Source: Xanthomonas euroxanthea
GTDB taxonomy: Bacteria; Pseudomonadota; Gammaproteobacteria; Xanthomonadales; Xanthomonadaceae
Length of the DNA: 64,000 nucleotides
Assembly: GCF_900476395.1 (NCBI RefSeq)
Contig: NZ_UIHB01000001.1
Location: 959,385-1,023,384 of the forward strand
Direction of reading: 5' to 3'
The first letter of the stretch is position 1, and every line of letters begins with the position of its first letter. Position numbers and translations under genes: made by a program. Shown here one piece after another: positions 1,415 through 35,986 of this stretch. The notes beneath the pieces are model-generated. The model searched no databases. It had not been told where the DNA came from and worked only from the letters and a program-made list of their open reading frames with translations.

Positions 1415-2068
1415 ATGACGATTTCTTCGAAAACCGGTACACCCGCTGCGCTGCCGTTGCGCGACGACGGCGCCCTGCGCGGGGCAGTAATGCTGGCGCT
1501 GTTCATCCTGCTGGGTCTGGGCCTGAGCTATTCGCTGGTCGCCACCGGCATCACCGGCGCGCTGTTCCCGGTGCAGGCGCATGGCTCGCTGCTGCGCGAT
1601 GACGCGCGGGTGGTCGGCTCGGCCCTGGTGGCCCAGCCGTTTGCCGATGCGCGCTATTTCCAGCCACGCCCCTCGGCCGCCAAGTACGACCCGACCGCGG
1701 CGGCCGGCAGCAACCAGGCGCGTTCCAATCCCGACCTGCAGACCCGCATTGCCGCCACGCGCGCCGAGGTGGCGGCACGCGACGGCATCGCGCCGGAGGC
1801 AGTTCCCGGCGAATTGCTGACCCAGTCCGGCAGTGGCCTGGACCCGCACCTGAGCCCGGCCGCGGTGCAGGTGCAACTGCGCCGCGTCGCCACCGCGCGC
1901 GGCTGGCCGGAACGGCGCGTCGCCGCGCTGGTCCAGGCCGCCACCGAACAGCCACAGTTCGGCCTGTTCGGGCAGCCGCGGGTGAATGTGCTGGCGCTGA
2001 ACCTGGCGCTGGATCGCGCCGGGAATGGGGAGTCGGGAATCGGGAATGGGATGAAGCAAAAGCACTAG
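1415..2068 (+). CDS. kdpC: K+-transporting ATPase subunit C
   Basis: Small accessory subunit of KdpFABC, anchored by one N-terminal membrane helix (about residues 27-47) with a periplasmic domain; it assists K+ binding and complex assembly. The conserved PYFQPRPSA-like stretch appears as ARYFQPRPSAAKYD. 217 aa is slightly long for the family because the last 15 residues (GNGESGIGNGMKQKH) are encoded by the G-rich arm of an intergenic heptad repeat that has run over the original gene end. The ATG lies 3 nt after kdpB; a GGGGAACTGAG stretch just upstream may serve as ribosome binding site. Confidence 0.96.
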   Translation: MTISSKTGTPAALPLRDDGALRGAVMLALFILLGLGLSYSLVATGITGALFPVQAHGSLLRDDARVVGSALVAQPFADARYFQPRPSAAKYDPTAAAGSNQARSNPDLQTRIAATRAEVAARDGIAPEAVPGELLTQSGSGLDPHLSPAAVQVQLRRVATARGWPERRVAALVQAATEQPQFGLFGQPRVNVLALNLALDRAGNGESGIGNGMKQKH

Positions 2069-2122
2069 GATCAGCGGGCAGCTGTAGGCTTTGCGATTCC
2101 CCATTCCCTATTCCCCATTCCC
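2021..2122. repeat. GGGAATS heptad hairpin element, copy 1 (kdpC/kdpD)
   Basis: G-rich arm 2021-2050 made of GGGAATG/GGGAGTC/GGGAATC heptads, loop 2051-2094, complementary C-rich arm 2095-2122 of GATTCCC/CATTCCC/TATTCCC heptads. The loop is bordered by GAAGCAAAAGC and GGCTTTGC, an inner inverted repeat. The kdpC stop falls inside the loop and the kdpD ATG follows the C arm directly. Five runs of three or more G with 3-4 nt loops satisfy the simple G-quadruplex rule. Confidence 0.9.
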
Positions 2123-2123
2123 G

Positions 2124-4784
2124 ATGATCGACGCCCGCACCCAACAAGCCGACGCGCTGATCGGCGAACTGCAGCGCGAACACGGCGGGCGTCTGACCGT
2201 TTTTCTGGGCGCCGCGCCGGGCGTGGGCAAGACCTACGCCATGTTGTCGCGCGCGCGCGAGCGCCTGCGCCAGGGCATGGACGTGGTGGCCGGAGTGGTG
2301 GAAACGCACGGCCGCAGCGAGACCGCCGCACTGCTGGATGGCCTGCCGTTGCTGGCGCGTACCCGCATCAGCTACCAGGGCCGGCAGCTGGAAGAGCTCG
2401 ACCTGGATGCCTTGCTCGCGCGCAAGCCGAAGCTGGCCCTGATCGACGAGCTTGCGCATCGCAATATACCGGGCAGCCGGCACGAGCGGCGCTGGCAGGA
2501 CATCGTCGAACTGCTCGATGCCGGCATCGATGTCTACACCACGGTCAACATCCAGCATCTGGAAAGCCTCAACGACATCGTGCTGCGCATCACCGGGGTG
2601 CGCGTGTCCGAGACCGTGCCCGATGCGGTGTTCGATCGCCTGCGCGACATCGTGCTGGTGGATCTGCCGCCACGCGAACTGATCGAACGCCTGCAGCAGG
2701 GCAAGGTGTATCTGCCCGAACAGGCCACGCAGGCCTTGCAGGCATTCTTCTCGCCCTCCAACCTCACCGCCCTGCGCGAGCTGGCGATGCAGACCGCGGC
2801 CGACCGCGTCGACAGCGATCTGCGCGACACCCAGGCCGCGCGCGGCCTGCCCGGCACCGCCGCCTTGCGTCGCCGCGTGGTGGTGGCCATCGATGGGCGT
2901 GGCGGCTCGGATTATCTGGTGCGGGTGGCGCGGCGGCTGTCCGAGCGGCGCGATGCGCCGTGGACGGTGGTCACCGTGCAGACGCGCACCGTGGCCGATG
3001 CCGCCTGGCAGCTGGAGATCGACCGCGCGTTCGCACTGACACGCCGCCTGGGGGGCGATACCGCGCTGCTGCACGGCGCCAACGTCGCGCAGGCATTGCT
3101 GGATTTCGCTGCGCAAAACGGCGTGTCCACGCTGGTGCTGGGGCGTACGCGCGAACGCCCGCTGGCGCGCATGTTCAACCGCACGCTGACCCAGCAACTG
3201 CTGCAGCGTGGCGCGCATTACGAGCTGGTCATCGTCAGCTCCGCCGATGCGCGTGCACGCGCGCGCCAGCGTTGGCGCAATCCGCGCCAGTGGCTGCAGC
3301 GCTACGACCTGGCGTTCGCGGCGATCGCCGCCGCTGCAGCGGTCGCGGTGGCGTGGGTGATCCAGCGCTGGACCGACATCGACGACCTGTCGATGGTGTT
3401 CATCGTCGCAGTGGTGCTGGTGGCCTCGCGCACACGCATGGCCGCGGCGGTGATCGCCGCGCTGCTGAGTTTTGTCGCCTACAACTTCTTCTTCATCGAA
3501 CCACGCTTCACCCTGCACATCAGCGCGCGCCAGGGCGTGGTGACGGTATGCCTGTTCCTGATCGCCGCGCTGGTCGCCGGCCGCCTGGCCTCGCGCCTGC
3601 GCAGCCAGGTGCTGGCCCTGCGCGCCGCCAACGCGCATGCCAATGCACTGCAGGCGCTGGCCCGCGAGCTCAGCACCGCCGCCGACCTGGGGCAGGTGCT
3701 GGAAGCCGGCCGCCGTGCGCTGGCCACTGCACTGGATGCCGAGGCCTGGTTGCGGCTGGAGCAACGCGAGAGCGATGCGCCGGCCAGCTTCGGCGCACTC
3801 GATCGCAGCGCGGCGGAGTGGACCCAGCGCCACGGGCAGCCGGCCGGCCACTTCACCGATACGCTGGCCGGCGCGCAGTGGTGGTGCCTGCCGGTGCGGC
3901 ACGAACGTGGCAGCCTGGGCGTGGCCGCGCTGCGCTTTCGTCAGAGCGTGCAGCGGCCCGGCCTGGAGCAACGTCGGCTGGCCGAAGCGATGGTGGAGGA
4001 CATCGGCCAGGCAGCGCTGCGCACGCGCCTGGTCGCCGATCTGGAGGGCGCGCGCGTCAGTGGCGAAACCGAGCGCCTGCGTTCGGCATTGCTGTCCTCG
4101 GTCTCGCACGATCTGCGCTCGCCGCTGGCCTCGATGATCGGCTCGGCCAGCAGCCTGGCCAGCTACGGCGATGCGATGGACGCGCAGGACCGCCACAGCC
4201 TGCTCGATACCATCCAGCTGGAAGGCGAGCGGCTGGATCGCTACATCCAGAACCTGCTCGACATGACCCGGCTCGGCCATACCGGGCTGACCTTGAAGCG
4301 TGACTGGATCGGCGTGGACGAGTTGATCGGCTCGGCCACGCGGCGGCTGCAGCGCTACCAGCCGGCGGTGCGCCTGCACCTGGAGCTGGCTGTCGACCTG
4401 CCGGCGATCTGGGTGCACCCGGCACTGGTGGAGCAGGCGATCTTCAACGTGCTGGAGAATGCGGCGAAATTCTCGCCAGCCGACGTGGCCGTCACCGTGC
4501 AGGCGCGGCTGCAGGCCGGCGCCCTGCAGATCGATATCGGCGACCAGGGCCCCGGCATTCCCGAGGACGAGCGCGCGCGCATCTTCGACATGTTCTACAG
4601 CGTGGAGCGTGGCGACCGCGGCCGCCATGGCACCGGGCTGGGCCTGACCATCTGCCAGGGCATGATCGGCGCGCATGGCGGCAGCGTGGAGGCGCTGGCC
4701 GGCGCCGATGGTCACGGCACCACGATCCGCATTACGCTGCCGTTGCTCGTTCCCGCCGCGCCACCTCGCCACGATGCCGACTGA
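2124..4784 (+). CDS. kdpD: Osmosensitive K+ channel sensor histidine kinase
   Basis: Membrane sensor kinase that phosphorylates KdpE in response to low K+ or osmotic stress. Domains in order: KdpD sensor domain with Walker A GAAPGVGKT (about residues 29-37) and the DELAHRNIPGSRH stretch; a universal-stress-protein-like domain (~245-370); four membrane helices (~395-495); a GAF-like region; HisKA with SVSHDLRSPL, phosphoacceptor His662; HATPase with NVLENAAKFS and GTGLGLTICQG. 886 aa is the normal size. ATG 2124 starts exactly where family similarity starts; it has no Shine-Dalgarno sequence because the preceding 28 nt are the C arm of a heptad repeat. A TTG at 2091 would add a repeat-encoded RFPIPYSPFP peptide and is judged unlikely. 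Confidence 0.95.
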   Translation: MIDARTQQADALIGELQREHGGRLTVFLGAAPGVGKTYAMLSRARERLRQGMDVVAGVVETHGRSETAALLDGLPLLARTRISYQGRQLEELDLDALLARKPKLALIDELAHRNIPGSRHERRWQDIVELLDAGIDVYTTVNIQHLESLNDIVLRITGVRVSETVPDAVFDRLRDIVLVDLPPRELIERLQQGKVYLPEQATQALQAFFSPSNLTALRELAMQTAADRVDSDLRDTQAARGLPGTAALRRRVVVAIDGRGGSDYLVRVARRLSERRDAPWTVVTVQTRTVADAAWQLEIDRAFALTRRLGGDTALLHGANVAQALLDFAAQNGVSTLVLGRTRERPLARMFNRTLTQQLLQRGAHYELVIVSSADARARARQRWRNPRQWLQRYDLAFAAIAAAAAVAVAWVIQRWTDIDDLSMVFIVAVVLVASRTRMAAAVIAALLSFVAYNFFFIEPRFTLHISARQGVVTVCLFLIAALVAGRLASRLRSQVLALRAANAHANALQALARELSTAADLGQVLEAGRRALATALDAEAWLRLEQRESDAPASFGALDRSAAEWTQRHGQPAGHFTDTLAGAQWWCLPVRHERGSLGVAALRFRQSVQRPGLEQRRLAEAMVEDIGQAALRTRLVADLEGARVSGETERLRSALLSSVSHDLRSPLASMIGSASSLASYGDAMDAQDRHSLLDTIQLEGERLDRYIQNLLDMTRLGHTGLTLKRDWIGVDELIGSATRRLQRYQPAVRLHLELAVDLPAIWVHPALVEQAIFNVLENAAKFSPADVAVTVQARLQAGALQIDIGDQGPGIPEDERARIFDMFYSVERGDRGRHGTGLGLTICQGMIGAHGGSVEALAGADGHGTTIRITLPLLVPAAPPRHDAD

Positions 4785-5490
4785 CCCCACTGCCATCCCG
4801 CCTGCCCGCGTGCTGATCGTCGACGACGAGCCGCAGATCCGCCGCTTTCTCGACATCAGCCTGCGCGCACAGGGGTATCGCGTGCTGCAGGCCGGCACCG
4901 CCGAGGAAGGCCTGGCCATGCTGGCCGGGCAGGGCGCCGAACTGGTGGTGCTGGACATCGGCCTGCCCGATCGCGACGGCCACGAGGTGCTGCGCGAAAT
5001 CCGCCAGTGGTCCAGCGTGCCGGTGATCATGCTCACCGTGCGCGCCGGCGAAACCGAAAAGGTCGCCGCGCTCGATGCCGGCGCCAACGACTACGTCACC
5101 AAGCCGTTCGGCGTGCAGGAACTGATGGCGCGCATCCGCGCGTTGCTGCGCCAGGCCGGCGCCGGCAGCACGGTGGAGGAGAGCGTGTTCGACGACGGCC
5201 GCCTGCACATCCACCTGGGCCTGCGCGAGGTCACCCTCGATGGCGAGGCGGTGCCCTTGAGTCGCAAGGAATACGCCCTGCTCGCGCTGCTGTTCAAGCA
5301 CGCCGGCCGCGTGGTCACCCAGCCGCAGCTGCTGCGCGAGGTGTGGGGCCCCACCCATGAAGACGACACCCATTACCTGCGCATCCTGGTCGGCAAGCTG
5401 CGCCAGAAACTGCACGACGATGCCGCCGCCCCGCATTACATCGTCACCGAACCGGGCGTGGGGCTGCGCTTCATCGGGGTGACGCGCTGA
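4774..5490 (+). CDS. kdpE: Kdp operon response regulator
   Basis: OmpR/PhoB-family response regulator that activates kdp transcription. Receiver domain with acidic pocket DD at residues 17-18, phosphoacceptor Asp61 in VVLDIGLPD, and Lys in YVTKPFG; C-terminal winged helix includes VTQPQLLREVWG and ETHYLRI-like TDHYLRILVGKLR region. 238 aa is typical. The ATG overlaps the end of kdpD by 11 nt, implying translational coupling of sensor and regulator. The gene ends 10 nt from the convergent oxidase gene. Confidence 0.96.
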   Translation: MPTDPTAIPPARVLIVDDEPQIRRFLDISLRAQGYRVLQAGTAEEGLAMLAGQGAELVVLDIGLPDRDGHEVLREIRQWSSVPVIMLTVRAGETEKVAALDAGANDYVTKPFGVQELMARIRALLRQAGAGSTVEESVFDDGRLHIHLGLREVTLDGEAVPLSRKEYALLALLFKHAGRVVTQPQLLREVWGPTHEDDTHYLRILVGKLRQKLHDDAAAPHYIVTEPGVGLRFIGVTR

Positions 5491-5500
5491 GGCGGCAGCG

Positions 5501-7425: not shown

Positions 7426-7441
7426 CGCGCGTGGGTCGTTG

Positions 7442-7810: not shown

Positions 7811-7814
7811 GGTG

Positions 7815-9545: not shown

Positions 9546-9627
9546 TTCAGATCCATTGGACGGGGCCCGCCGGGGCGGACCGTTAAAAACGCTACGATTC
9601 TACCCTTTGCCCTACGGAATACCGTCG

Positions 9628-10449: not shown

Positions 10450-10494
10450 GTGTGTTGTTGCAGGAGCACGTTGACCTGTAGTGGGATTTTTCTC

Positions 10495-10532
10495 GGTAAG
10501 GCCTCTCGCGCCCGGGTGCGCTCCTACGGGCA
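10495..10532. repeat. GTAGGAGCGC-type REP sequence after rsmI
   Basis: The stretch CGCGCCCGGGTGCGCTCCTAC (split at centre) at about 10508-10527 is the same REP-like half element found in both orientations between 51941 and 52280. It contains the palindrome GCGCCCGGGTGCGC. Confidence 0.7.
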
Positions 10533-10609: not shown

Positions 10610-11038
10610 GGCGGAGTCGGCCAGACAGTCGCGTCACTCGCAAGAGTGCCGAGGAAAGTCCGGGCTCCATAGGGCAAGGTGCCAGGTAACGCCTGGGCGG
10701 CGCGAGCCGACGGAAAGTGCAACAGAAAGATACCGCCTACGTCCCTCGTCACCCCTCTGCCGCCACTGAAGCGTGTCGGCGATGCGCAGCATCGCCAAGT
10801 GCGTTTAGAGGCTGCAGAGGGGTGGCGAGGGGCCGGTAAGGGTGAAATGGTGCGGTAAGAGCGCACCGCGAGTCCGGTAACGGACCGGCACGGCAAACCC
10901 CACCTGGAGCAAGACCAAATAGGGATCCATTGGCGTGGCCCGCGCTGGATCCGGGTAGGTTGCTTGAGCGCTGCGGTGACGTAGCGCCTAGACGAATGAC
11001 TGTCCACGACAGAACCCGGCTTACCGGCCGGCTCCGCC
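10610..11038 (+). ncRNA. rnpB: RNase P RNA (bacterial type A)
   Basis: Catalytic RNA that removes tRNA 5' leaders. The universal core is visible: GAGGAAAGTCCGGGCTCC (P4 5' side), GCCAGGTAACGCCTGGGCGG, AGTGCAACAGAAAGATACCGCC, GTGAAATGGTGCGGTAAGAGCG, AAACCCCACCTGGAGCAAG, and the 3' end ATGACTGTCCACGACAGAACCCGGCTTA. Ends were set by the P1 helix: GGCGGAGTCGGCC at 10610 pairs with GGCCGGCTCCGCC ending at 11038. About 429 nt is long for type A because of a stretched P12 stem (10742-10831). A TATAGT at 10597-10602 could be the -10 box. Confidence 0.95.
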
Positions 11039-11040
11039 AC

Positions 11041-11258: not shown

Positions 11259-11269
11259 GCGCCCCCTTG

Positions 11270-12896: not shown

Positions 12897-13343
12897 GTGT
12901 TTCAGGGCGAGACTGCCATCACGGTGGACGACAAGGGGCGTATGGCGGTGCCAACCGCGTACCGCGACCTGGTCACGCGCGTGAGCGGCAATCGCCTGGT
13001 GCTCACCTACAACCCGTTCGAAGCCGGCTGCCTGTGGCTGTATGCGGAAAAGGAGTGGGAGCGGGTGCGTGACGATGTGATGTCCAAGCCCAACACCCAG
13101 CGCGTGGTCCGCACGCTGCAGCAGAAACTGGTGGGTTCTTCCGCAGTGCTGGAGCTGGACGCCAATGGCCGTCTGAGCATCCCGGCCAGCCACCGCAACG
13201 CGGTCGGCATCGAGAAGAAGGCCGTGCTGTTGGGCATGGGCGACAAATTCGAACTCTGGAGCGAGCAGGCACATCGCGCACTGATCCAGCAGACATTGTC
13301 TGACGGGGATCTGGGCGATGAATTGCTCGATCTCAGGTTGTGA
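12897..13343 (+). CDS. mraZ: Transcriptional regulator MraZ
   Basis: DNA-binding repressor of the division and cell wall cluster, two AbrB-like MraZ domains arranged in a ring. Domain 1 carries [17 protein letters not shown], domain 2 [17 protein letters not shown] (the repeated D-x-x-GR-x-x-(I/V)P motif). GTG 12897 is preferred: it yields [10 protein letters not shown], matching the usual MFRG start, and has GAGG 9 nt upstream; the TTG at 12888 overlaps that ribosome binding site. 148 aa is typical. It ends 4 nt into the longest possible rsmH frame. Confidence 0.94.
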
Positions 13344-13357
13344 GCCGGGGTGCCCGG

Positions 13358-14416
13358 ATGCGCGGTGAAGCGCAGCCCGGTCACCCGGTGTCGCAGCCGC
13401 CGGCGGCCCATGTGCCGGTGCTGTACACGCAGGTTCTGGACGGCCTGCAGGTGATCGAAAACGGAACTTATCTCGATGGCACGTTTGGACGTGGCGGACA
13501 CGCCCGTGGCGTGCTGCAACACCTTGGCCCGGGAGGTCGACTGCTGGTGATGGACAAGGACCCCGACGCGATCGCCGTGGCCGAACAGTCGTTCGGTGGC
13601 GATGCGCGCGTGTCCATCCATCGCGGTAGCTTTGCCGGCCTCGGCCAGGTGGTCGCTGCGGCAACCGTCGACGGCATCCTGCTGGATCTGGGCGTGTCCT
13701 CGCCGCAGCTGGATGTGGCCGGGCGCGGTTTCAGTTTCGGCAAGGACGGCCCGCTGGACATGCGCATGGACCCGGATGCCGGCCAGAGCGCGGCCGAGTG
13801 GCTGGCGCAGGCCAGCGAGCGCGACATCGCCGACGTGCTGTGGACCTATGGCGAAGAGCGCCAGAGCCGCCGCATCGCGCGCGCCATCGTGGCGCGCCGC
13901 GCCGAACAGCCGCTGCTGCGCACTGCGCAACTGGCCGAGCTGATCGCCTCGGTGATGCCGCGCGGCGACAGCAAGACCCATCCGGCCACGCGCAGCTTTC
14001 AGGCGATCCGCATCTATATCAACCGCGAGCTGGACGACCTGGAAGCCGGCCTGGATGCCGCCCTGGGTGCGCTCAAGCCCGGCGGCCGCCTGGCGGTGAT
14101 CAGCTTCCACTCGCTGGAAGACCGCATCGTCAAGCAGTTCATGGCCCGCTACGCCAAGGCGCCGCCGAGCAACCGCCGCCTGCCCGAAGCCCAGCCTTTC
14201 GTGCCGACGCTGCAGCTGATCAGCGGCGCCATCAAGGCCGACGACGCCGAACTGAGCGTCAACCCGCGCGCCCGCAGCGCGGTGTTGCGGGTGGCCGAAA
14301 AGCTGGGAATGGGAAATGGGGAATCGGGAATGGGCAAAGGCAACAGCGGCGCTGCTTCCCGATTCCCGAATCCCGATTCCCGATTCCCGGCGTCTCCGAA
14401 CGGAGACGCCGCATGA
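13358..14416 (+). CDS. rsmH: 16S rRNA (cytosine1402-N4)-methyltransferase
   Basis: Methylates N4 of C1402 in 16S rRNA, partner modification of RsmI. Class-I SAM fold: [16 protein letters not shown] (SAM loop), [21 protein letters not shown], and [30 protein letters not shown] 13358 has a purine-rich GGGG 7 nt upstream; alternatives are GTG 13340, overlapping the mraZ stop, and GTG 13388 ([12 protein letters not shown]). The core ends at VLRVAEKLG; the remaining ~36 residues ([12 protein letters not shown]... [12 protein letters not shown]) are encoded by both arms of a heptad repeat. The stop overlaps the ftsL ATG. Confidence 0.94.
14305..14389. repeat. GGGAATS heptad hairpin element, copy 2 (inside rsmH 3' end)
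   Basis: G arm 14305-14334, short loop 14335-14355 starting CAAAGGC and ending GCTGCTT, C arm 14356-14389. Entirely translated as the C-terminal tail of RsmH. Shortest loop of the seven copies. Confidence 0.88.
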
Positions 14417-20673: not shown

Positions 20674-22052
20674 TGAACGACATGTCCCGCCAGGCCACGC
20701 GACTGGACGCCATCGGCGGCCGCTACGACCCGTGGCTGCTCGGGGCCGCGGCCACGCTCGCCTCGCTGGGCGTGGTGATGGTGGCGTCCAGCTCGATCGA
20801 GCTGTCCGACAACCCGTTCTATTACCTGACCCGCCACCTGCTGTTCCTGGGCATTGGCGTGGGCCTGGCGTTCTGGGCGATGCGTACCGAGCTCAAGACC
20901 ATCGAGCAGTACAACCAGGTGCTGCTGCTGGCCTGCTTCGGCCTGCTGATGGTGGTGTTCGTGCCCGGCCTGGGCAGCAGCGTCAACGGCGCCAAACGCT
21001 GGATCAACCTGGGCGTGTCGAAGTTCCAGACCGTCGAAGCGGTCAAGGTGCTCTACATCGTGTGGCTGTCCAGCTATCTGGTGCGCTTTCGCGACGAGGT
21101 CAACGCGACCTGGCCGGCGATGCTCAAGCCGCTGGGCGTGGCGATCGCCCTGGTCGGCCTGCTGCTGATGCAGCCGGACTTCGGCTCGTCCACGCTGCTG
21201 CTGGCGATCACCGCCGGCATGCTGGTGCTGGGCGGGGTGAACCTGCCGCGCATGTCGATGCCGATCGTGTTCGGCCTGCCGGTGTTCGCCTTCATCGCGA
21301 TCCTGGAGCCGTACCGGCTGCGCCGCATCACCTCGTTCCTGGACCCGTGGGCCGACCAGCTCGGCTCCGGCTACCAGCTGTCCAACGCCTTGATGGCGGT
21401 GGGCCGCGGCCAGTGGACCGGCGTGGGCCTGGGCGCCTCGGTGCAGAAGCTCAACTACCTGCCCGAAGCGCATACCGACTTCATTTTCTCGGTCATTGCC
21501 GAAGAACTCGGCTTTGTCGGCGTGTGCGGGGTGATCGCGCTGTACGCGCTGCTGGTCGGCCGCGCGTTCTGGCTGGGCATGCGCTGCGTGGAAATGAAGC
21601 GTCACTTCTCCGGCTACATCGCCTTCGGCATCGGCTTGTGGATCAGCCTGCAGAGCTTCGTCTCGGTGGGCGTGAACCTGGGCATCCTGCCGACCAAGGG
21701 CCTGACCCTGCCGCTGATTTCCTCCGGCGGTTCGTCGGTGCTGATGACCTGCGTGGCGATGGGCCTGCTGCTGCGCGTGTCCTACGAGATGGATCGTGCC
21801 GAGCGCCTGCGCAGCAAATTGTCGCCGCAGGGCGCGGGCGCGCCGTCGGCCGAGCCGGCCGAACCGGTGGTCGAATCGGTCGCGCCAGCCTATGCGCCGG
21901 CGCACAAGCCGCAGCGTGACCCGGTTGCCGCCGCACCCGCAGCCGCAGCCGCACCGGTCGCTGCCGCATCGGTGGCACCGGCGTCGGCCATCCTGCGCGG
22001 CACCAGCCGCATGCAGCCGCGTGTGGAACCGACCTTCGGGAGGATTGCATGA
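20673..22052 (+). CDS. ftsW: Peptidoglycan glycosyltransferase / cell division protein FtsW
   Basis: SEDS-family glycan polymerase of the divisome, partner of FtsI. About ten membrane helices; the conserved periplasmic loop has [12 protein letters not shown] and, later, [10 protein letters not shown] near the last helices; QPDFGSS and EELGFVG are further SEDS signatures. The catalytic-type Asp lies in the loop [15 protein letters not shown]. After the last helix a ~70-residue Ala/Pro-rich cytoplasmic tail (EPAEPVVES ... [12 protein letters not shown]) is longer than in E. coli. 459 aa. Confidence 0.96.
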
Positions 22053-23329
22053 GTGCCCATGCGAATCCCTCGCAAACGCCCGCACATCCAGGTGCGGGGG
22101 GTCGACCAGTGATGATTCTGGCTGGCGGCACCGGCGGGCACATCTTCCCGGGTCTGGCCGTGGCCAAGGTGCTGCGCGCGCGTGGCGTGCCGGTGACCTG
22201 GCTGGGCGCCGATGGCGCGATGGAAACCCGGCTGGTGCCGCAGCACGCCATTCCACTGGACACGCTGGCCATCAGCGGCCTGCGCGGTAAGGGGCTGGTG
22301 AAATTGCTCGGTGCACCGGTGCGGGTGATGCGCGCAGTGCGCGCCGCCGGTTTCGTGCTGCGCAAGCGCCAGCCGCGTGCGGTGATCAGTTTCGGCGGCT
22401 TCGCGGCCGGCCCGGGTGGCCTGGCGGCGCGGCTGCTCGGCGTGCCGTTGCTGGTGCACGAACAGAACCGCGCGCCCGGCATGACCAACAAGGTGTTGTC
22501 GCGGTTTGCGCGCCGCGTGCTGACCGGTTTCCCGGGCAGCTTCACTGGCGAGGAAGCGGTGGGCAATCCGGTGCGCGCGGAAATCGCAGCGCTTCCGGCG
22601 CCGGCCACGCGTCTGGTCGGCCGTGGCGGTGCCGTGCGTGTGCTGGTGCTCGGTGGCAGCCAGGGCGCGCGCGCATTGAATCAGGCCGTGCCAGCGGCAC
22701 TGGCCGCGCTCGGCCACCCGGATGTGGACGTGCGCCACCAGTGCGGCGAGAAGCTGCGCGCCGAAGCCGAGGCGGCGTACGCGCAGGCGGGCGTCAACGC
22801 CAGCGTCGAACCGTTCATCGCCGACATGGCCGCCGCTTACGCCTGGGCCGACCTGGTCGTGTGCCGCGCCGGTGCATCGACGCTGGCCGAACTGTGCGCC
22901 GCCGGCATCGGCAGCGTGCTGGTGCCCTTTGCCGCAGCGGTGGACGACCACCAGACCCGCAATGCCGAATACCTGGTCGGGGCCGACGCCGCGGTGCTGC
23001 TCAAGCAGGACGACACCCTGGCCGTGCGCCTGCAGCAGGTCTTGCAGACCCTGCTCGCCGACCCCGCACGCCGCCTGTCGATGGCACAGGCCGCCCGCAC
23101 CCTGGCCAAACCGGATGCAGCCGAACGCATCGCCGACATCATTCTGCAGGAAGCCGGGAGTGGTGAATCGGGAATGGGGAATGGGCAAAGCTCAGAACAA
23201 TTGCAGGAACACACATTGATGCACGCAGACAAGCGCACCGACCAAGTATCCGTCGCTGCAGGCGCTCCGCTCCACACGATTCCCGATTCCCGATTCCCGA
23301 TTCGCACCTCCACAGGAGGTGCCGCGTGA
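22049..23329 (+). CDS. murG: UDP-GlcNAc:lipid I N-acetylglucosaminyltransferase
   Basis: Peripheral membrane GT28 enzyme making lipid II. N-domain G-loops [15 protein letters not shown] and [20 protein letters not shown]-domain [10 protein letters not shown] and [11 protein letters not shown] for UDP-GlcNAc binding. Homology ends near [10 protein letters not shown]; the next ~50 residues ([11 protein letters not shown] ... [16 protein letters not shown]) come from a heptad repeat and its loop, so 426 aa is well above the usual ~355. ATG overlaps ftsW; stop overlaps the GTG of murC. Whether the tail is tolerated passively or plays a role at the membrane is unknown. Confidence 0.96.
23156..23302. 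repeat. GGGAATS heptad hairpin element, copy 3 (murG 3' end)
   Basis: G arm 23156-23184, loop 23185-23277 starting CAAAGC, C arm 23278-23302. Translated in full as the MurG tail. The C arm ends 24 nt before the murC GTG, leaving room for the AGGAGG-like CACAGGAGGTG ribosome binding site at 23311-23321. Confidence 0.86.
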
Positions 23330-25716: not shown

Positions 25717-25801
25717 GGGAATGGGGAATGGGGAATCTGGAATCGTGAACAGCGGCTGCGCTGTTGCCGTTGCGATTCCCTATTCCCGATTCCCCATTCC
25801 C
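25717..25801. repeat. GGGAATS heptad hairpin element, copy 4 (ddl/ftsQ)
   Basis: G arm 25717-25746 (three near-perfect heptads, then degenerate), loop 25747-25773 ending GTTGC, C arm 25774-25801. This copy is wholly non-coding. It is followed by a GC palindrome GCGCGCGGAGCGCGCGC (25802-25818) that contains the GGAG ribosome binding site of ftsQ. Confidence 0.88.
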
Positions 25802-25818
25802 GCGCGCGGAGCGCGCGC

Positions 25819-26655
25819 ATGAACGCCACCCTGCGCATCCTGGCGTGGTTGCTCGCGGTGGCGCTGGTCGCGTTGCCGGTGGTGGCCGTGCTCAATGGCT
25901 GGGTCGGCGCCGAGCGCTGGCCGTTGGCGCGGCTGCGGGTGTCGGGCGACTTCAAGCGGGTGCCGGCCGAGCAGTTGCGTGCGGTGGTCCTGCCGTATGC
26001 GCGCGCGGGCTTTTTCGCGGTGAAGTTGCAGAACGCGCAGGACGCCATCGCGCGCCTGCCGTGGGTGGAAAGTGCGCAGGTGCGCAAGCGCTGGCCGGAC
26101 GTGCTGGAAGTGCACGTCACCGAGCACAAGCCGTTCGCGCGCTGGGGCACCGACCGCATGTTGTCCGAGCAGGGCCGGTTGTTCCGCACCCCGCCGTTGT
26201 TGAAGGACTTCAAGCTGCCGCAGCTCGGCGGCCCGGACAGCAAGACCCAGGACGTGGTGGCGCTCTACAACGAGTCGCGCGCGCTGTTCGCGCCGACCGG
26301 GCTGGATGTGGAACGTCTGGAAATGGACGCACGCGGCAGCTGGTCGCTGGGCCTGAGCAACGGCGTGCAGATCGTGATCGGCCGCGACGACGCCCGCGCC
26401 CGCCTGCAACGCTTCGCCCGCGTGCTGCCGCAACTGGCCGACCCGCAACGCCCGATCGCCCGCGCCGACCTGCGCTATACCAACGGCTTCACGGTGGAAC
26501 GGCGAATGGAGAATGGGGAGTCGGGAATGGGCAAAAAGCCAAAGCCAGTGTCGCCCGCTGCGCCGCACACGCTTGTCCTGAACTCTCCCCGCATCCGTGC
26601 ACCGCTGTTGACCATTCCCCATTCGCTATTCCCTATTCCCGGCTTTAAGACATGA
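25819..26655 (+). CDS. ftsQ: Cell division protein FtsQ
   Basis: Bitopic divisome scaffold binding FtsB/FtsL. Cytoplasmic N terminus, membrane helix at residues ~6-28, POTRA domain (LARLRVSGDFKRV to VHVTEHKPFARWG) and FtsQ beta domain. Homology stops at DLRYTNGFTVERR; the last ~48 residues ([11 protein letters not shown] ... LLTIPHSLFPIPGFKT) are repeat-encoded. GGAG at 25808-25811 supports ATG 25819, and could be hidden in a GC hairpin. The stop overlaps the ftsA ATG. Confidence 0.95.
   Translation: MNATLRILAWLLAVALVALPVVAVLNGWVGAERWPLARLRVSGDFKRVPAEQLRAVVLPYARAGFFAVKLQNAQDAIARLPWVESAQVRKRWPDVLEVHVTEHKPFARWGTDRMLSEQGRLFRTPPLLKDFKLPQLGGPDSKTQDVVALYNESRALFAPTGLDVERLEMDARGSWSLGLSNGVQIVIGRDDARARLQRFARVLPQLADPQRPIARADLRYTNGFTVERRMENGESGMGKKPKPVSPAAPHTLVLNSPRIRAPLLTIPHSLFPIPGFKT
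26503..26640. repeat. GGGAATS heptad hairpin element, copy 5 (ftsQ 3' end)
   Basis: G arm 26503-26531, loop 26532-26611 starting CAAAAAGCCAAAGCC, C arm 26612-26640. Read through as the FtsQ tail; the ftsA start follows 12 nt after the C arm, so the ftsA ribosome binding region GGCTTTAAGAC is squeezed between repeat and start. Confidence 0.87.
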
Positions 26656-27887: not shown

Positions 27888-28177
27888 AGAATCGGGAATC
27901 GGGATTCGAGAATTGGTTGAAGCAAAGGCAAAGCGGTTGCGGCAGATTTGAGTGGAGAGCGGTGAGAGCGGGCAGGGCGTAAATACTTTTGTGGTTCCGC
28001 TGAGAAAGTGAAGTTGGTGTGGAGATCGCTCGCAGTTGCGATTCCCCATTCCCAACTCCCCATTCCCGGCATTCAAACAACAACATTCGCCGACATGCGG
28101 GTGTTGGGCTGGCGAACGGAGCAATCCGATTCCCCATTCCCGATTCCCCATTCACGGCATCTAAAGAGGACACTGAC
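27888..28177. repeat. ftsA-ftsZ spacer with heptad element copy 6 (one G arm, two C arms)
   Basis: Short degenerate G arm 27889-27907 directly after the ftsA stop, bordered by GAAGCAAAGGCAAAGC; first C arm 28040-28070 preceded by GTTGC; second C arm 28128-28156. No G arm precedes the second C arm, so this copy looks rearranged or partly duplicated. The 290-bp spacer has no convincing gene. AAAGAGGA at 28163-28170 is the ftsZ ribosome binding site. Confidence 0.8.
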
Positions 28178-29422
28178 ATGGCACATTTCGAACTGATTGA
28201 AAAAATGGCTCCCAACGCGGTCATCAAGGTCGTTGGCGTGGGCGGCGGCGGCGGCAACGCGGTCGCGCACATGGTCAACACCAATGTCGATGGCGTGGAG
28301 TTCATCACCGCCAACACCGACTCGCAGGCGATCAAGAACTGCGGCGCCAAGCTGCAGCTGCAGCTCGGCACCAACGTGACCAAGGGCCTGGGCGCCGGCG
28401 CCAATCCGGAAGTCGGCCGCCAGGCTGCGCTGGAAGATCGCGAGCGCATCATGGACGCACTGCAGGGTGCGGACATGGTGTTCATCACCGCCGGCATGGG
28501 CGGCGGCACCGGCACCGGCGCGGCGCCAGTCGTTGCACAGCTGGCCAAGGAAATGGGCATCCTGACCGTGGCCGTGGTCACCAAGCCGTTCCCGTTCGAA
28601 GGCCGTCGCCGCATGCAGGTCGCGCTGAAGGGCATCGAGGAACTGAGCCAGCATTGCGACTCGCTGATCACCATCCCCAATGAAAAGCTGATCACCGTGC
28701 TCGGCCGCAACGCCACCATGATCCAGGCCTTCCGCGCTGCCAACGACGTGCTGCAGGGCGCCGTGCAGGGCATCGCCGACCTGATCGTGCGTCCGGGCCT
28801 GATCAACGTCGACTTCGCCGACGTGCGCACCGTGATGTCGGAAATGGGCCTGGCCATGATGGGTACCGGTTCGGCACGCGGCGACGATCGCGCGCAGGCC
28901 GCTGCCGAAGCCGCCATCCAGAACCCGCTGCTGGACGACGTCAACCTGGCCGGTGCCAACGGCATCCTGGTCAACATCACCGCCGGCCCGGACTTCACCA
29001 TGTCCGAGTTCGACGAGATCGGCCGCACCATCGAAGCGTTCGCCTCGGAAGATGCGACCGTGGTCGTCGGCACCGTGCTTGACCCGGACATGCAGGACGA
29101 AGTGCGCGTCACCGTGGTGGCCACTGGCCTGAACCGTGCGGTTGCCCGCCAGACCCAGCGTCCGGACCAGCGCGCGCCGATCAAGCTGGTACGCAACGCC
29201 ACCACCGGCCAGCCGGAGTTCGGCGATTTCGACACCAGCGGCGGCGATGCGGTGTCCAAGGCCGTCGGCGGCAGCATGGGCCTGGGCCTGCGTCGTCCGA
29301 GCAGCGACTCGGTCGGCAGCGGCAGCGGTAGCAACAACGGTGGCGGCTCCGCTGCGCCGGCTGCAGACCTGCCCAACGACTACCTGGATATCCCGGCGTT
29401 CCTGCGCCGCCAGGCCGACTGA
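28178..29422 (+). CDS. ftsZ: Cell division protein FtsZ
   Basis: Tubulin-like GTPase forming the cytokinetic ring. GTP-binding [13 protein letters not shown], tubulin signature [13 protein letters not shown]7-loop [11 protein letters not shown]. The C-terminal linker is Gly/Ser-rich ([14 protein letters not shown]) and ends in the FtsA/ZipA-binding peptide [14 protein letters not shown]. 414 aa. ATG 28178 has AGAGGA 7 nt upstream. It is separated from ftsA by 290 bp, unlike the tight overlaps elsewhere, so separate transcription is possible. Confidence 0.98.
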
Positions 29423-29502
29423 GGAGCGTCGGCCGCGTCGCTACGGCGGCGCGGTCCGTCCCGCCCCGGGGTTCGCCCCAGGGATGCTGTGCCATGTCCT
29501 TT

Positions 29503-29534
29503 CTGCCGGATCGGCCACGATCCGGCAGCTTTTG
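29503..29534 (+). terminator. Rho-independent terminator after ftsZ
   Basis: Perfect 11-bp stem CTGCCGGATCG/CGATCCGGCAG with a 4-nt loop (29503-29528), followed by CTTTTGC. It closes the dcw transcript 80 nt after ftsZ. Confidence 0.8.
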
Positions 29535-29540
29535 CAGTTG

Positions 29541-29570
29541 CGTGACCCGGGAATTACAGTTCCCGTCACG
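29541..29570. promoter_or_regulatory. Inverted repeat in the lpxC upstream region
   Basis: CGTGACCCGGGAA and TTCCCGTCACG flank TTACAG; an 11-bp stem with a 2-nt bulge. It sits between the ftsZ terminator and the AT-rich TTGTTAAAATTCGGATAATC (29577-29596) that probably contains the lpxC promoter. No T-run, so an operator or leader structure is more likely than a terminator. Confidence 0.5.
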
Positions 29571-29654
29571 CGCGACTTGTTAAAATTCGGATAATCTCTA
29601 CGGATTAGACAGCCGGTTCAGCGTCTGTCTGCATTGTTCATCCAGACTTCGCAT

Positions 29655-30566
29655 ATGACCCAGCAACGCACTCTCAAGAACACCATTCGCGCCACCGGCG
29701 TCGGCCTGCACAGTGGCGACAAGGTGTACATGACGCTGCGACCGGCCCCGGTCGATCATGGCGTGGTGTTCCGGCGTGTGGACCTGGAGCCGATCGTCGA
29801 AGTTCCTGCCGATGCCGAGCTGGTCACCGAGACCACGCTGTGCACCGGCCTGACCTGCAATGGCGCCAAGATCCAGACCGTCGAGCACCTGATGTCGGCG
29901 CTGGCCGGCCTGGGTGTGGACAACGTCATCGTCGAACTGTCCTCGGCCGAGTTGCCGATCATGGACGGTTCGTCCGGCCCGTTCGTGTTCCTGCTGCAAT
30001 CGGCAGGCATCGTCGAGCAAAACAAGGCCAAGCGCTTCATCCGCATCAAGCAGACGGTGGAAGTGCGCGAGGGCGACAAGGTCGCGCGCTTCGAGCCGTA
30101 CGAAGGCTACAAACTCGGCTTCACCATCGAATTCAATCACCCGATGATCCCGGCCAAGCAGTCGCGCCAGGAAATCGAGTTCTCCACCTCGGCCTACGTC
30201 AAGGAAATCTCGCGCGCCCGGACCTTCGGTTTCATGCGTGATCTCGAATATATGCGCGAGCGCAATCTGGGCCTGGGCGGGTCGATGGACAATGCCATCG
30301 TGCTGGACGAGTTCCGCGTGCTCAACGAGGACGGCCTGCGCTACACCAACGAATTCGTGCGGCACAAGATCCTGGACGCGATCGGCGACCTGTATCTGGC
30401 CGGCGGCGCCATCCTGGGCGCCTACGAAGGCTTCAAATCCGGCCACGCACTCAACAACAAGTTGGTGCGCGCGCTGCTGGCGGATCAGGCCGCCTGGGAA
30501 TGGGTCAGCTTCCCCGAGGGCAGCGTGCAGCCACCGGTCACCTACGCCAGCCCCGTCTACGCCTGA
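29655..30566 (+). CDS. lpxC: UDP-3-O-acyl-N-acetylglucosamine deacetylase
   Basis: Zn2+-dependent deacetylase, first committed step of lipid A synthesis, cytoplasmic. Zn ligand His78 in VEHLMSAL; second site [15 protein letters not shown] supplies His and Asp; [15 protein letters not shown] and [10 protein letters not shown] are family signatures. 303 aa as in E. coli. ATG 29655 gives [21 protein letters not shown]; the in-frame ATG 21 nt upstream adds residues homologues lack. Confidence 0.98.
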
Positions 30567-30752
30567 TGTCGGGGAATGCCGTAATCGGCGTTCGAAGTGT
30601 GAACTGCGTCGGATTTACGGCCCGTTCTTAACTTTTATTTAAGACTTCTCTAACTCCTGCGCGGCCCAGGCCCGCTAGGATGCGTCGGGTCGTGCGCGGC
30701 CTTCGCAACTCTTTCACGCCGCGATGGCCGTCGCGTAACAGGCGACACCGAC

Positions 30753-31199: not shown

Positions 31200-32144
31200 A
31201 TGGCGTTGAAGAAAGTTGTAATCAAATCTCGCGAAACCCGGGCGCAACGGTTGGCCCGGCAGTTCCAGGGCTTCGCTGCGGATCGACCGATGGTAGTCCT
31301 CGGTGCCGTGCTTGGGCTGGGCATGTTGATCGGCATCGGTGCCAGCACCGCCACCGGCATGGTGACCAATTCCGCGTTGCAGGCCAAGGTTGCCCGGCAG
31401 CAGGCCGAGCTGGCCCAGGCGCAGCGCGCCTCGCAGGCGCAGGTCAACGCACTGGCCGCGCGCATGGGCGAGCTGCAGGCGCAGGCCACCCGTCTCAATG
31501 CATTGGGCGAGCGGCTGACCGAAATGGGCAAGCTGAAGGACGGCGAGTTCGACTTCGACGCGCCGGTCGGCGTCGGTGGCGGCGATGAGCCGGTCAGCGA
31601 CATGCCGGTCGAATCGCTCAAACAGACGCTAGGGCAGGTCGAACAGCAGTTCTCCGCCTCCGGCCAGCAACTAAACGTGCTGGCCACGCTGATGTTCGAT
31701 CATCAGCTCGAACAGAATTCGGTGCCCTCGCGGATGCCGATCCGCAACACCTACATCACCTCCGGCTTCGGCGGCCGCGCCGATCCGTTCGACGGCGGCT
31801 CGGCCTTCCACAAGGGGGTGGACTTCCACGCCAACGTGGGCGACCCGGTGATGTCGGTCGCCGATGGCGTGGTCAGCTACGCCGGCGTGCGCGGCGGCTA
31901 CGGCAACGTGGTGGAAGTGGACCACGGCAACGGCTACGTGACCCGCTATGCACACAACTCTCGCCTGGTGGTGAAGGTGGGCGATCTGGTCCGCGCCGGC
32001 CAGCAGGTGGCCAGGGCCGGATCCAGCGGCCGCTCCACCGGCGCGCACGTGCATTTCGAAGTGTGGGCGGACGGGCGGGTGGTCAATCCGCGCAAGTTCC
32101 TCGGCGATACCAATACGCCGGTGGGCCGCCGCGGGCGCGGTTGA
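31200..32144 (+). CDS. M23 family metallopeptidase (membrane-anchored, LytM-like)
   Basis: Bitopic periplasmic protein with a LytM/M23 domain. Residues ~27-50 form a membrane helix, ~55-115 a coiled coil rich in Ala and Gln, and ~185-300 the peptidase domain with HKGVDFHA and the HVHFEVW motif, so the Zn ligands (H-x3-D and H-x-H) appear intact. Could cleave peptidoglycan cross-links or regulate amidases, like the EnvC/NlpD group. ATG 31200 is the first Met outside the dciA overlap. 314 aa. Confidence 0.9.
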   Translation: MALKKVVIKSRETRAQRLARQFQGFAADRPMVVLGAVLGLGMLIGIGASTATGMVTNSALQAKVARQQAELAQAQRASQAQVNALAARMGELQAQATRLNALGERLTEMGKLKDGEFDFDAPVGVGGGDEPVSDMPVESLKQTLGQVEQQFSASGQQLNVLATLMFDHQLEQNSVPSRMPIRNTYITSGFGGRADPFDGGSAFHKGVDFHANVGDPVMSVADGVVSYAGVRGGYGNVVEVDHGNGYVTRYAHNSRLVVKVGDLVRAGQQVARAGSSGRSTGAHVHFEVWADGRVVNPRKFLGDTNTPVGRRGRG

Positions 32145-32188
32145 CGACGGCGCGGGTGGTGCTTGATTCGTGAAGGCCCGCCCCAAGC

Positions 32189-32237
32189 TACAATAGGGTG
32201 TTGCCATCGACAGGGCGCAGTGCGCCCTGTTTCGTTT
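32189..32237 (+). promoter_or_regulatory. secA leader: -10-like box and hairpin
   Basis: TACAAT at 32189-32194 resembles a -10 box (weak TTGATT 20 nt further upstream). Twenty nt later ACAGGGCGCA/TGCGCCCTGT makes a perfect 10-bp stem (32210-32230) followed by TTCGTTT. It could act as an attenuator-like leader hairpin or a weak terminator of the preceding peptidase gene. No SecM-like ORF is visible. Confidence 0.5.
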
Positions 32238-32299
32238 ACGGCGGCCGGGTCTTGGGGACCGGCGTCGGTCAAACCGTTCCTTTTCAACCGGTTTCTTCA

Positions 32300-35019
<2,720 letters not shown>

Positions 35020-35038
<19 letters not shown>

Positions 35039-35107
35039 GCTGAGTTGACCGTGGTGCAGCCCGCCTGGCGGGCTGCACACCAGGCATCCGCGTCGCGGAC
35101 GCCTGGT
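35020..35107 (+). terminator. Three abutting hairpins at the secA 3' end
   Basis: Stem 1: CCACGGTCA (35020) with TTGACCGTGG (to 35054), containing the secA stop. Stem 2: GTGCAGCCCG/CGGGCTGCAC (35054-35078). Stem 3: CACCAGGC-TCCGCG/CGGA-GCCTGGTG (35077-35107). They share boundary bases and lack a T-run, so they may protect or terminate the transcript through structure alone. Confidence 0.6.
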
Positions 35108-35509
35108 GCACGGTCCTTGCTTCCGATCCCCGCGCCGTTGGCGCGCCCCCTTACCAAGGGGGCTCTGCTGACGGAGGGATTCGTTGGAGCTGCTGATACT
35201 CAGGCGTGGAATGTGGGCGGCGGGGTGCAATGACCCCACTGAATCTCACGCTTTTTCCAACTCTCCGCCTAGTCCCTGCCAACGGCTTGGCTTGCGTGGT
35301 TGCCAGGCAACGTCTGCAACCCGTGGCATAGACTCCAGAAGCGTTCGACCAGCTTGATGGGCGCTGTCCTGGTGAGCCTGGGCTTGGCGCGGTTCGCCCC
35401 ACGCTTGTCCATCGCGCGCCGGTGGCAACCATGCCTGCTGCACGCAGGCTTTTCCGCCTGCGACACTGCGGGGCGTATGCTCGATCCACGTCCTGCGGGG
35501 GAGTGCGTC
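35108..35509. other. Spacer secA to VOC gene
   Basis: No gene supported. Contains the short hairpin CCCCCTTACCAAGGGGG (35146-35162), sister to the one at 11262-11280. GGGGGAG at 35497-35503 is the ribosome binding site for the following gene. Confidence 0.6.
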
Positions 35510-35986
35510 ATGTCGCAGCTGTCCAGCCAGCAACTGAAGGTGTTCGTGCCTGCGCGCGACTACGCGCTGTCGCAGCGGTTCTATCGCGCGCTGGGCTTCG
35601 TGCAGGAGGACGAGGTGGGCAATGTGACCTGCTTCCGGCATGGCACGCATTGTGCGTTCCTGCTGCAGGATTTCTACCTGCGCGAGCTGGCCGAGAACCT
35701 GATGCTGCACCTGTGGGTGGACGATGCCGACAGCTGGTGGCAGCACGTGCACGATGCCGGCCTGGACGCGCAGTTTGCAGTGACCTGCAGCGTGCCGGAA
35801 GACCGTCCATGGGGCGCACGCGATTTCACCCTGCACGATCCCAGCGGAGTGCTCTGGCATCGGCCATCCACTGTAGACGTGAATCGGGAATCGGGAACGG
35901 GGAATTGCAAAGGCGGGCATGGTGCGTGCTTCAAACGATTCCCGATTCCCGAATCTCCATTCCCCGCCCTCAAGCGATTGCGCTGA
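35510..35986 (+). CDS. VOC (glyoxalase/bleomycin-resistance-like) family protein
   Basis: Small protein with one vicinal-oxygen-chelate fold: KVFVPARDYALSQRFYRALGF at the start, HLWVDDADSWW in the middle, WGARDFTLHDPSGVLWH at the end. The core is ~128 residues; the last ~30 (VNRESGTGNCKGG ... FPIPESPFPALKRLR) are encoded by a heptad repeat. Start 35510 has GGGGGAG six nt upstream. Enzymatic activity or ligand cannot be predicted. Confidence 0.82.
   Translation: MSQLSSQQLKVFVPARDYALSQRFYRALGFVQEDEVGNVTCFRHGTHCAFLLQDFYLRELAENLMLHLWVDDADSWWQHVHDAGLDAQFAVTCSVPEDRPWGARDFTLHDPSGVLWHRPSTVDVNRESGTGNCKGGHGACFKRFPIPESPFPALKRLR
35881..35965. repeat. GGGAATS heptad hairpin element, copy 7 (VOC gene 3' end)
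   Basis: G arm 35881-35907, loop 35908-35936 starting GCAAAGGC and ending TTCAAAC, C arm 35937-35965. Read as the C-terminal tail of the VOC protein. Lies 50 nt before the Nudix-ThiE start. Confidence 0.85.

What the first reader, a model, noticed from the sequence alone, without database searches (positions are those of the whole stretch)
2021..35965. A heptad-repeat hairpin element found seven times at gene ends, with built-in G-quadruplex potential
Seven copies (2021, 14305, 23156, 25717, 26503, 27889, 35881) share one plan: several GGGAATS heptads, an inner GCAAAGC-like border, a loop of 21-135 nt, a GCTTTGC/GTTGC-like border, and several GATTCCC-like heptads. The G arm always comes first; since the element is its own reverse complement, both strands carry a 5' G-rich and 3' C-rich arm. 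Each arm has 4-5 runs of G3+ with 3-4 nt loops, so a hairpin and a G-quadruplex compete. All copies hug a stop codon, and five lie in the dcw operon region. Possible roles: transcript processing, polarity control inside the operon, or protein (nucleoid) binding. I know of no functional description.
Basis: partly seen in the sequence, partly recalled or inferred. Interest (0 to 1): 0.75.

Follow-up and report, generated by a model that had tools for sequence, protein, structure and literature searches.

The report
Swappable heptad-hairpin cassettes between genes
Short hairpins built from repeated 7-letter units sit between neighbouring genes in Xanthomonas; the repeats themselves were published in 2015, but here they turn out to behave like interchangeable cassettes that differ even between very similar strains while the genes beside them stay the same.

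Summary
The seven copies are real and far beyond chance. The basic observation is not new: Rehm et al. 2015 (PMC4692102) described these GGGAATC repeats in Xanthomonas, with inverted pairs, stop-codon proximity and CD evidence for G-quadruplexes. Comparing relatives adds four things not seen in the text I read. (1) At orthologous junctions the arms occur in 'dialects' (GGGAATS, GGGATTS, GGGACCC, GGGGACC, GGGACTC, GTGATTC); both arms agree in 71 of 76 rows with two callable arms. (2) Arms and loop are replaced together: two X. arboricola-like strains (flanks 91-99%, mostly 96-98%) differ in dialect at 11 of 14 paired loci in 680 kb, and in five of seven genomes examined, cassettes resemble other species while flanking genes stay native. 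(3) A genome tends to carry one dialect at distant loci. (4) Where the upstream ORF runs through the cassette, reading frame is kept (rsmH-ftsL 30/30, murG-murC 29/29, ftsQ-ftsA 28/28); not at ftsA-ftsZ or hslV-hslU. Not every allele can form a G-quadruplex. Best reading: transcribed, partly translated hairpin cassettes exchanged as discrete alleles; function and exchange mechanism are inferred.

The parts
2021..2122 (.). heptad hairpin, kdpC-kdpD junction (KdpC frame ends in the loop; kdpD starts at 2124)
   Evidence: KdpD by Pfam; RNA z -5.2
14305..14388 (.). heptad hairpin, rsmH-ftsL junction; RsmH ORF (13340-14416) runs through it to a stop overlapping the next start
   Evidence: MraW methylase by Pfam
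23156..23305 (.). heptad hairpin, murG-murC junction; MurG ORF (22049-23329) runs through it
23306..23325 (+). small hairpin holding the murC Shine-Dalgarno-like GGAGGT paired to ACCTCC
25717..25801 (.). heptad hairpin, ddlB-ftsQ junction; a mini-ORF from GTG overlapping the ddlB stop runs through it to ATGA of ftsQ
25802..25818 (+). small hairpin GCGCGCGGAGCGCGCGC around the ftsQ ribosome-binding site
26502..26640 (.). heptad hairpin inside the FtsQ C-terminal tail (FtsQ ORF 25819-26655), before ftsA
27894..28067 (.). heptad hairpin, ftsA-ftsZ spacer (no frame constraint)
   Evidence: C10:987512-987539
35879..35964 (.). heptad hairpin upstream of a NUDIX-like gene starting at 36015

Best explanation
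Each copy is a junction cassette: about four tandem heptads, a GNAANAGC-like border, a spacer, the inverse border, about four inverse heptads, filling the space between one gene's end and the next gene's start. It would be transcribed as a stable hairpin, and at several overlapping stop/start junctions of the dcw operon it can also be translated, because the upstream ORF reads through it. SHOWN here: at the junctions compared, the cassette exists as a few discrete alleles that differ in heptad dialect in both arms and in the loop; alleles are shared between species and replaced as units while the flanking genes stay native; reading frame is kept where the upstream ORF ends on the next start codon. 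INFERRED: replacement happens by short-tract allelic exchange with breakpoints at or near the arms; what is conserved is a hairpin at the cistron junction (melted by ribosomes where it is translated, otherwise shaping processing, stability or polarity of the transcript), not a particular sequence and not the G-quadruplex.
For: Arm concordance 71 of 76 rows, related genomes included. Window against its sister L138 (= G017): flanks 95-99%, cassettes 47%, 48%, 68%; three other gaps nearby 0.97, 0.97, 1.00, one of which carries heptads in 7 of 25 genomes. Mosaic of L138: all seven gene segments nearest to X. arboricola-type genomes, all four cassettes nearest to other species (0.80-0.94, against 0.50-0.74 to the window); L143 and L139 likewise for all four cassettes, L141 and L130 for three of four (seven genomes looked at, most picked because their dialect differed from kin; the window itself is not such a mosaic and L123 is mixed). 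L139, L123 and L141 share a murG-murC cassette at 93-94% though their flanks are 84-93%. Genome scale: of 31 loci 14 switched dialect fully, 9 same, 5 partial, 1 absent, 2 unmapped; of 14 paired loci 11 switched. Frame: 29/29, 28/28 and 28/29 at the first three junctions, then 30/30 at rsmH-ftsL, of which two genomes had been seen before; one genome there differs by exactly 21 nt = three heptads. RNA z below -3 in 24/29 and 27/29 cassettes at murG-murC and ddlB-ftsQ, 0/16 and 0/4 in relatives without them.
Against: Unit-by-unit complementarity between arms is no better than between shuffled arms, and 35 of the 87 arrays in C10 have no partner, so a perfect hairpin is not what is selected. At hslV-hslU a predicted frame rule failed (lengths mod 3 19/5/4; mini-ORF open in 11 of 28). 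The ftsQ-ftsA frame is also kept in relatives outside the set, most of them without cassette (51 of 52), so it belongs to the junction rather than to the cassette. Over all intergenic gaps the effect is moderate: identity median 0.72 (n=16) against 0.86 (n=150), P 0.003; only 0.878 against 0.904 over ungapped columns; 27 of 150 gaps without heptads are below 0.70 too. At ftsQ-ftsA only 11 of 28 and at ftsA-ftsZ 13 of 29 have z below -3, and nine ftsQ-ftsA rows have only a callable C arm. No expression data were examined.
Confidence: 0.55

Rival explanations
1. G-quadruplex element: the G arm folds into a quadruplex in DNA or RNA and regulates transcription or its end; the hairpin is secondary.
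For: CD spectra in K+ and more transcript starts/stops at G4-capable copies in Rehm et al. 2015; G arm always first (0 of 26 in the other order).
Against: A GTGATTC allele keeps both arms with one G3 run among four units; dialects change freely except for a GGGA-like start; four of seven window G arms have fewer than four G3 runs.
Confidence: 0.15
2. REPIN-like mobile element moved by a RAYT (Y1 transposase), the GNAANAGC border being a relic of the GTAGGAGC REP head.
For: Inverted doublets plus singletons in one fixed orientation; border resembles the Xanthomonas REP head GTAGGAGCG (Nunvar et al. 2010); one array abuts GGTAGGAGCGGCC.
Against: At least 11 genomes with 20 or more heptad-pair hits have no PF01797 match, e.g. 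G020 with 399 (tally by hand, a few of these assemblies incomplete); the own RAYT is flanked by other REPs without heptads in the 2 kb read; alleles are locus-specific rather than scattered copies.
Confidence: 0.12
3. Plain simple-sequence repeats: slippage makes the arrays, hairpin-templated copying keeps the arms alike; no function.
For: Array length varies up to 24 units and 7-bp loci are used as VNTR markers; concordant arms.
Against: No unit-level match between arms; loops change together with the arms and are shared across species, which slippage does not do.
Confidence: 0.15
4. Ordinary homologous recombination or old polymorphism: alternative junction alleles persist and flanking genes were homogenised by recombination up to the point of heterology.
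For: Alleles are trans-specific; neighbouring cassettes sometimes switch together (L130, L143); the shared cassette of L139, L123 and L141 includes about 20 nt of the murG end.
Against: Genes between the switched junctions of L138 remain native, which needs many breakpoints near cassette edges; distant loci agree in dialect.
Confidence: 0.4

Closest known systems
GGGAATC heptameric G-rich repeats of Xanthomonas (Rehm et al. 2015, PMC4692102; main text parts 1-6 of 8 read, supplements not)
   Same: Same unit, about four units, inverted pairs, intergenic, near stop codons, between aligned genes; 83% of Xcc repeats also present at the same place in Xac, with length and sequence variation noted.
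   Different: The text read does not mention the inner border, other dialects switching in both arms, cassette replacement between strains, or the frame rule; it stresses stability of the neighbourhood.
REP/BIME/REPIN elements with RAYT (Nunvar et al. 2010, PMC2817692; passages read; the term REPIN is recalled)
   Same: Intergenic inverted doublets in many copies, similar head sequence.
   Different: Heptad arrays outside the head; no dependence on a RAYT seen; locus-specific alleles.
7-bp VNTR loci used for Xanthomonas typing (PMC8002079; passages read)
   Same: Heptad units such as GGGATTT/GGGATTC/GGGAATC, variable copy number.
   Different: Single arrays used as markers; no inverted cassettes in the passages read.
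TAACTGA heptad repeats of Beggiatoaceae (PMC4679880; listing and start of abstract only)
   Same: Abundant intergenic tandem heptads with a supposed post-transcriptional role.
   Different: Other sequence, direct repeats, other bacteria.

Membership tests
GGGAATC repeats of Rehm et al. 2015 | at least two tandem units with at least one GGGAATC, or heterogeneous GGGANTN | tested here: met
GGGAATC repeats of Rehm et al. 2015 | mostly intergenic, close to the 5' neighbour's stop, co-directional genes, rare between divergent genes | tested here: met
   with a rough gene finder: of 26 pairs 18 co-directional, 4 convergent, 2 divergent, 2 inside ORFs; the ddlB-ftsQ (inside) and ftsQ-ftsA (divergent) calls are gene-finder errors
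GGGAATC repeats of Rehm et al. 2015 | G-quadruplex formation in K+ | not testable with these tools
   shown in vitro in that paper for GGGAATC oligonucleotides
REP/REPIN (RAYT-dependent) | cognate RAYT gene in the genome | tested here: not met
   the own genome has two PF01797 genes, but at least 11 heptad-rich genomes have no match (some assemblies incomplete)
REP/REPIN (RAYT-dependent) | GTAG/GTGG head before the palindrome | tested here: inconclusive
   border consensus G-N-A-A/G..AGC, exact GTAGGAGC in few copies
REP/REPIN (RAYT-dependent) | RAYT flanked by the same element | tested here: not met
   2 kb around each of the two own genes read
classical MITE | target-site duplication at an empty site | tested here: inconclusive
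   element-free relatives exist but are too diverged; no duplication seen by eye

The most novel reading that the evidence does not exclude
The heptad dialect is a genome-wide setting: a strain carries matching cassettes at many distant junctions, and closely related strains can carry another set, because a trans-acting factor reads (or writes) one dialect and cassettes are exchanged by a process that is aimed at them and spares the flanking genes. Such a system of interchangeable, dialect-matched RNA/DNA hairpins at cistron junctions has no described counterpart that I know of.
Probability: 0.15. Interest if true: 0.9.

Novelty: new variant of a known kind. Interest (0 to 1): 0.62.

Why it matters
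A repeat class known since 2015 without a function turns out to be a fast-changing part of one of the most conserved operons of bacteria, replaced as whole modules between species while the essential genes around it stay put, and still obeying the reading frame where it is translated. That makes two open questions testable: what a dispersed heptad repeat does at gene junctions, and how bacteria can swap 100-300 bp modules with sharp edges. It also warns that tandem heptads in Xanthomonas typing schemes may switch by allele replacement and not only by slippage.

Tried and rejected
RAYT mobilisation: searched PF01797 in the own genome and in 297 family genomes and read the two own loci; no support as a requirement. 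Fine-scale compensation between arms: none. 'Heptads chosen because they are stop-free in six frames': 74% of heptads with 4-6 G/C are, so this says little. A general translated mini-ORF: true at ddlB-ftsQ (28 of 29), failed at hslV-hslU (11 of 28). Lengths of own and G017 agree mod 3 at 10 of 11 co-directional paired cassettes and at about 5 of 18 other loci (my reckoning), but an ORF runs through to the next start in both strains at only 6 of the 11, so this is not used as evidence. Phage origin: three units in a row hit only 12 stretches of the viral collection, once each; not opened. Rfam at gathering threshold: none of its three window hits covers the elements. Local hypermutation of loops: rejected because window and L125 share a murG-murC cassette at 98.9% although their flanks are 95-96%. 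Dialect against species tree: 12 changes for six labels, shuffled mean 13.4, on a small tree of three genes from the same region. In one search nine of 30 rows were printed on the wrong strand; no count rests on it.

Full report
What is there. Reading the window confirms seven inverted heptad elements. A script over 1.6 Mb of the own contig (stretches) finds 39 G-rich and 48 C-rich arrays: 26 pairs in G..C order, 0 in C..G order within 350 bp, 35 unpaired arrays; the reversed control gives 1 and 0. The pattern GGGAATSGGGAATS occurs 324 times in the genome with 0 control hits. Paired arrays of periods 5, 6 and 8-11 are absent in this contig, though periods 4-6 give some in the fetched loci at a laxer threshold. 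Inside the array a border G.AR..AGC recurs in 36 of 94 arrays, against 3 of 94 on the outer side, also in unpaired arrays. Pfam finds MraW methylase (RsmH), both glycosyltransferase-28 domains (MurG), Mur ligase, D-Ala-D-Ala ligase, FtsQ, FtsA, FtsZ, KdpD, NUDIX and, for the gene read as hslU, AAA domains; hslV, hslU, ftsL, kdpC and other gene names are my reading of the translations.

What was already known. Rehm et al. 2015 (PMC4692102; parts 1-6 of 8 of the main text; supplements not available) report 186 and 183 such repeats in two Xanthomonas genomes, 70 and 75 cases of convergent pairs, a preference for four units, location near stop codons and between aligned genes, transcription, G4 formation of oligonucleotides in K+, possible competition of stem-loop and G4, 83% of Xcc repeats at the same place in Xac, and variation in length and sequence. 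The strings GCAAAGC, GCTTTGC, transposase and spacer do not occur in it. Further searches listed no paper whose title or abstract start concerns dialects or cassette exchange; only open-licence papers are searchable and only the listed rows were seen.

Dialects. One scan of named genomes with FtsA brought 80 loci of up to 21 kb (the best 80 of 538). At murG-murC, ddlB-ftsQ and ftsQ-ftsA the arms are built of GGGAATS, GGGATTS, GGGACCC, GGGGACC, GGGACTC or GTGATTC. Of 108 gap rows of at least 90 nt, 76 have both arms callable and in 71 both arms have the same dialect (24 of 27, 25 of 27, 22 of 22); 32 rows have one or no callable arm, among them nine ftsQ-ftsA rows with only a C arm. Many rows are related, so 71 is not 71 events; six dialects at murG-murC each occur with both arms. 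RNA duplex energies for one allele per dialect average -68.1 within and -48.2 across alleles. Yet unit-by-unit complementarity within own elements does not exceed that of shuffled arms (P 0.72-0.82; 22 of 26 elements usable). The arms share a dialect because they belong to one allele, not because single changes are compensated.

Cassette replacement. The window's nearest relative in a small tree is L138, X. arboricola NL_P126, 98% identical over MurC, FtsA and FtsZ; it is genome G017. Flanks are 95-99% identical, but the murG-murC and ddlB-ftsQ gaps are 47% and 48%, ftsQ-ftsA 68%. Three other gaps of the same stretch are 0.97, 0.97 and 1.00; one of these carries heptads in 7 of 25 genomes. Segment by segment, the seven gene pieces of L138 are nearest to X. 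arboricola-type genomes and the four cassettes to other species. L143 and L139 show the same for all four cassettes, L141 and L130 for three of four; L123 is mixed and the window's own cassettes look native. These seven were chosen, mostly because their dialect differed from kin. Over 680 kb of collinear sequence 31 own loci give 14 complete dialect switches, 9 unchanged, 5 partly overlapping, 1 absent, 2 unmapped; among 14 paired loci 11 switched (in one of them, ftsQ-ftsA, G017 has a callable C arm only), with flanks 91-99%, mostly 96-98%. Alignments show the change beginning at or inside the outer arms in this pair; in the allele shared by L139, L123 and L141 the shared block includes about 20 nt of the murG end. 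The control over all mapped intergenic gaps is less dramatic: median identity 0.719 for 16 gaps with heptads against 0.860 for 150 without (P 0.003), below 0.70 in 6 of 16 and 27 of 150, and 0.878 against 0.904 over ungapped columns. Sister genomes are clearly less similar than some other genome in 9 of 24 comparisons at two heptad gaps against 5 of 44 at others (Fisher P 0.025; comparisons not independent).

Coherence. GGGAATS:GGGATTS counts per genome range from 436:42 to 31:223 among 35 genomes of the genus; GGGGACC occurs in 12 of 35, mainly in four. Between murG-murC and hslV-hslU, about 165 kb apart in the own genome, 17 of 20 genomes agree (shuffled mean 9.9, P 0.0005); all ten pairs of five loci give P of 0.005 or less. 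These shuffles ignore relatedness; on the tree the murG-murC dialect is barely clustered (12 changes, shuffled mean 13.4, as low in 33 of 200), but the tree is small and regional.

Reading frame. In 29 Xanthomonas-type genomes the murG-murC gap is 2 mod 3 in 29 of 29 (ten lengths), and ftsQ-ftsA in 28 of 28 gaps over 90 nt (five lengths; two of them, L121 and L122, have no arms), because MurG and FtsQ read through to a stop overlapping the next start; at ddlB-ftsQ a mini-ORF gives 28 of 29; the ftsA-ftsZ spacer gives 11/9/9. The ftsQ-ftsA overlap also holds in 51 of 52 relatives outside this set, most without arms, so there the rule belongs to the junction and the cassette obeys it. Two tests followed. 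rsmH-ftsL, same coupling, two of its genomes already seen: 30 of 30 are 2 mod 3 in six lengths, the RsmH stop overlaps the ftsL start in 30 of 30, and one genome differs from its 113-nt kin by exactly 21 nt, three heptads (loci of 30 of 35 genomes). hslV-hslU, mini-ORF type: failed, 19/5/4 and open in 11 of 28 (two of 30 loci not parsed). So the rule holds where the upstream protein itself continues through the cassette. In L189 the only GGG unit among GTG units of the G arm stands where a GTG unit would create a TGA in the MurG frame (read by hand), an anecdote that fits.

How it probably works. Shown: predicted stable hairpins (z below -3 in 24 of 29 and 27 of 29 at murG-murC and ddlB-ftsQ, 11 of 28 and 13 of 29 at ftsQ-ftsA and ftsA-ftsZ; relatives without elements 0 of 16, 0 of 4, 1 of 18, 1 of 18; 40 shuffles each), a second small hairpin around the ribosome-binding site after the C arm with varying stems that are mostly, not always, paired, translation-compatible frames, replacement as units. 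Inferred: that ribosomes finishing the upstream gene open both hairpins and so couple the next gene, that untranslated cassettes act on transcript ends or stability, and that the palindromic arms make the cassette a preferred site of short allelic exchange. Nothing here measures expression.

Judgement. The element is a known class seen in a new light. The replacement of whole cassettes with native genes in between, repeated at several loci and in several species pairs, is the surprising part; ordinary recombination plus old polymorphism is the main rival and is not excluded.

Noticed in passing
window 23306-23325, 25802-25818; rsmH-ftsL gaps of L277-L306: Between C arm and start codon lies a short hairpin around the ribosome-binding site (ACCTCCNNNGGAGGT, GCGCGCGGAGCGCGCGC, CGTCTCCGAACGGAGACG) whose stem letters vary between species but mostly stay paired.
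   Followed up: partly
L122, L131, L133, L139, L141, murC-ddlB junction: A GGGACCC-type cassette sits inside the 5' coding part of ddlB, right after its first three or so codons; L123 and L127 have short remnants and most other genomes nothing.
   Followed up: partly
L247-L276, hslV-hslU junction: Two cassette alleles recur across the genus (by eye 18 GGGAATS with one loop, 9 GGGATTS with another, 1 other), each loop well conserved within its class.
   Followed up: partly
L278, rsmH-ftsL: The C arm is exactly 21 nt (three heptads) shorter than in its relatives, the smallest change of whole units that keeps the frame.
   Followed up: no
37 of 54 genera of the family, 135 of 297 genomes: GGGAATSGGGAATS is patchy inside genera (e.g. 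0 to 394 in g7, 0 to 468 in g16) and not limited to Xanthomonas.
   Followed up: partly
L146, L148, L149, ddlB-ftsQ: Three Stenotrophomonas-like genomes have a different hairpin there, one GGGATAC unit facing one GTATCCC unit.
   Followed up: no
L010 (own C10:1316518): RAYT-like gene surrounded by GTAGGAGCGCACCCGGGCGCGAC repeats in inverted pairs, the known Xanthomonas REP class.
   Followed up: partly
own C10, e.g. 1471908-1472133, 114090-114390, 1296156-1296468: A second family of long inverted repeats with ends GCGGCATGGATGCCGC and GCGGCGTGTCCC, arms of about 50 bp, many copies.
   Followed up: no
window 29409-29727, 10613-11039, 49155-49269: Rfam hits: Xoo8 sRNA near the ftsZ end, RNase P RNA, SAH riboswitch.
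   Followed up: no
L159: A genome labelled Stenotrophomonas sp. MMGLT7 carries Xanthomonas-type cassettes at murG-murC, ddlB-ftsQ and ftsA-ftsZ.
   Followed up: partly
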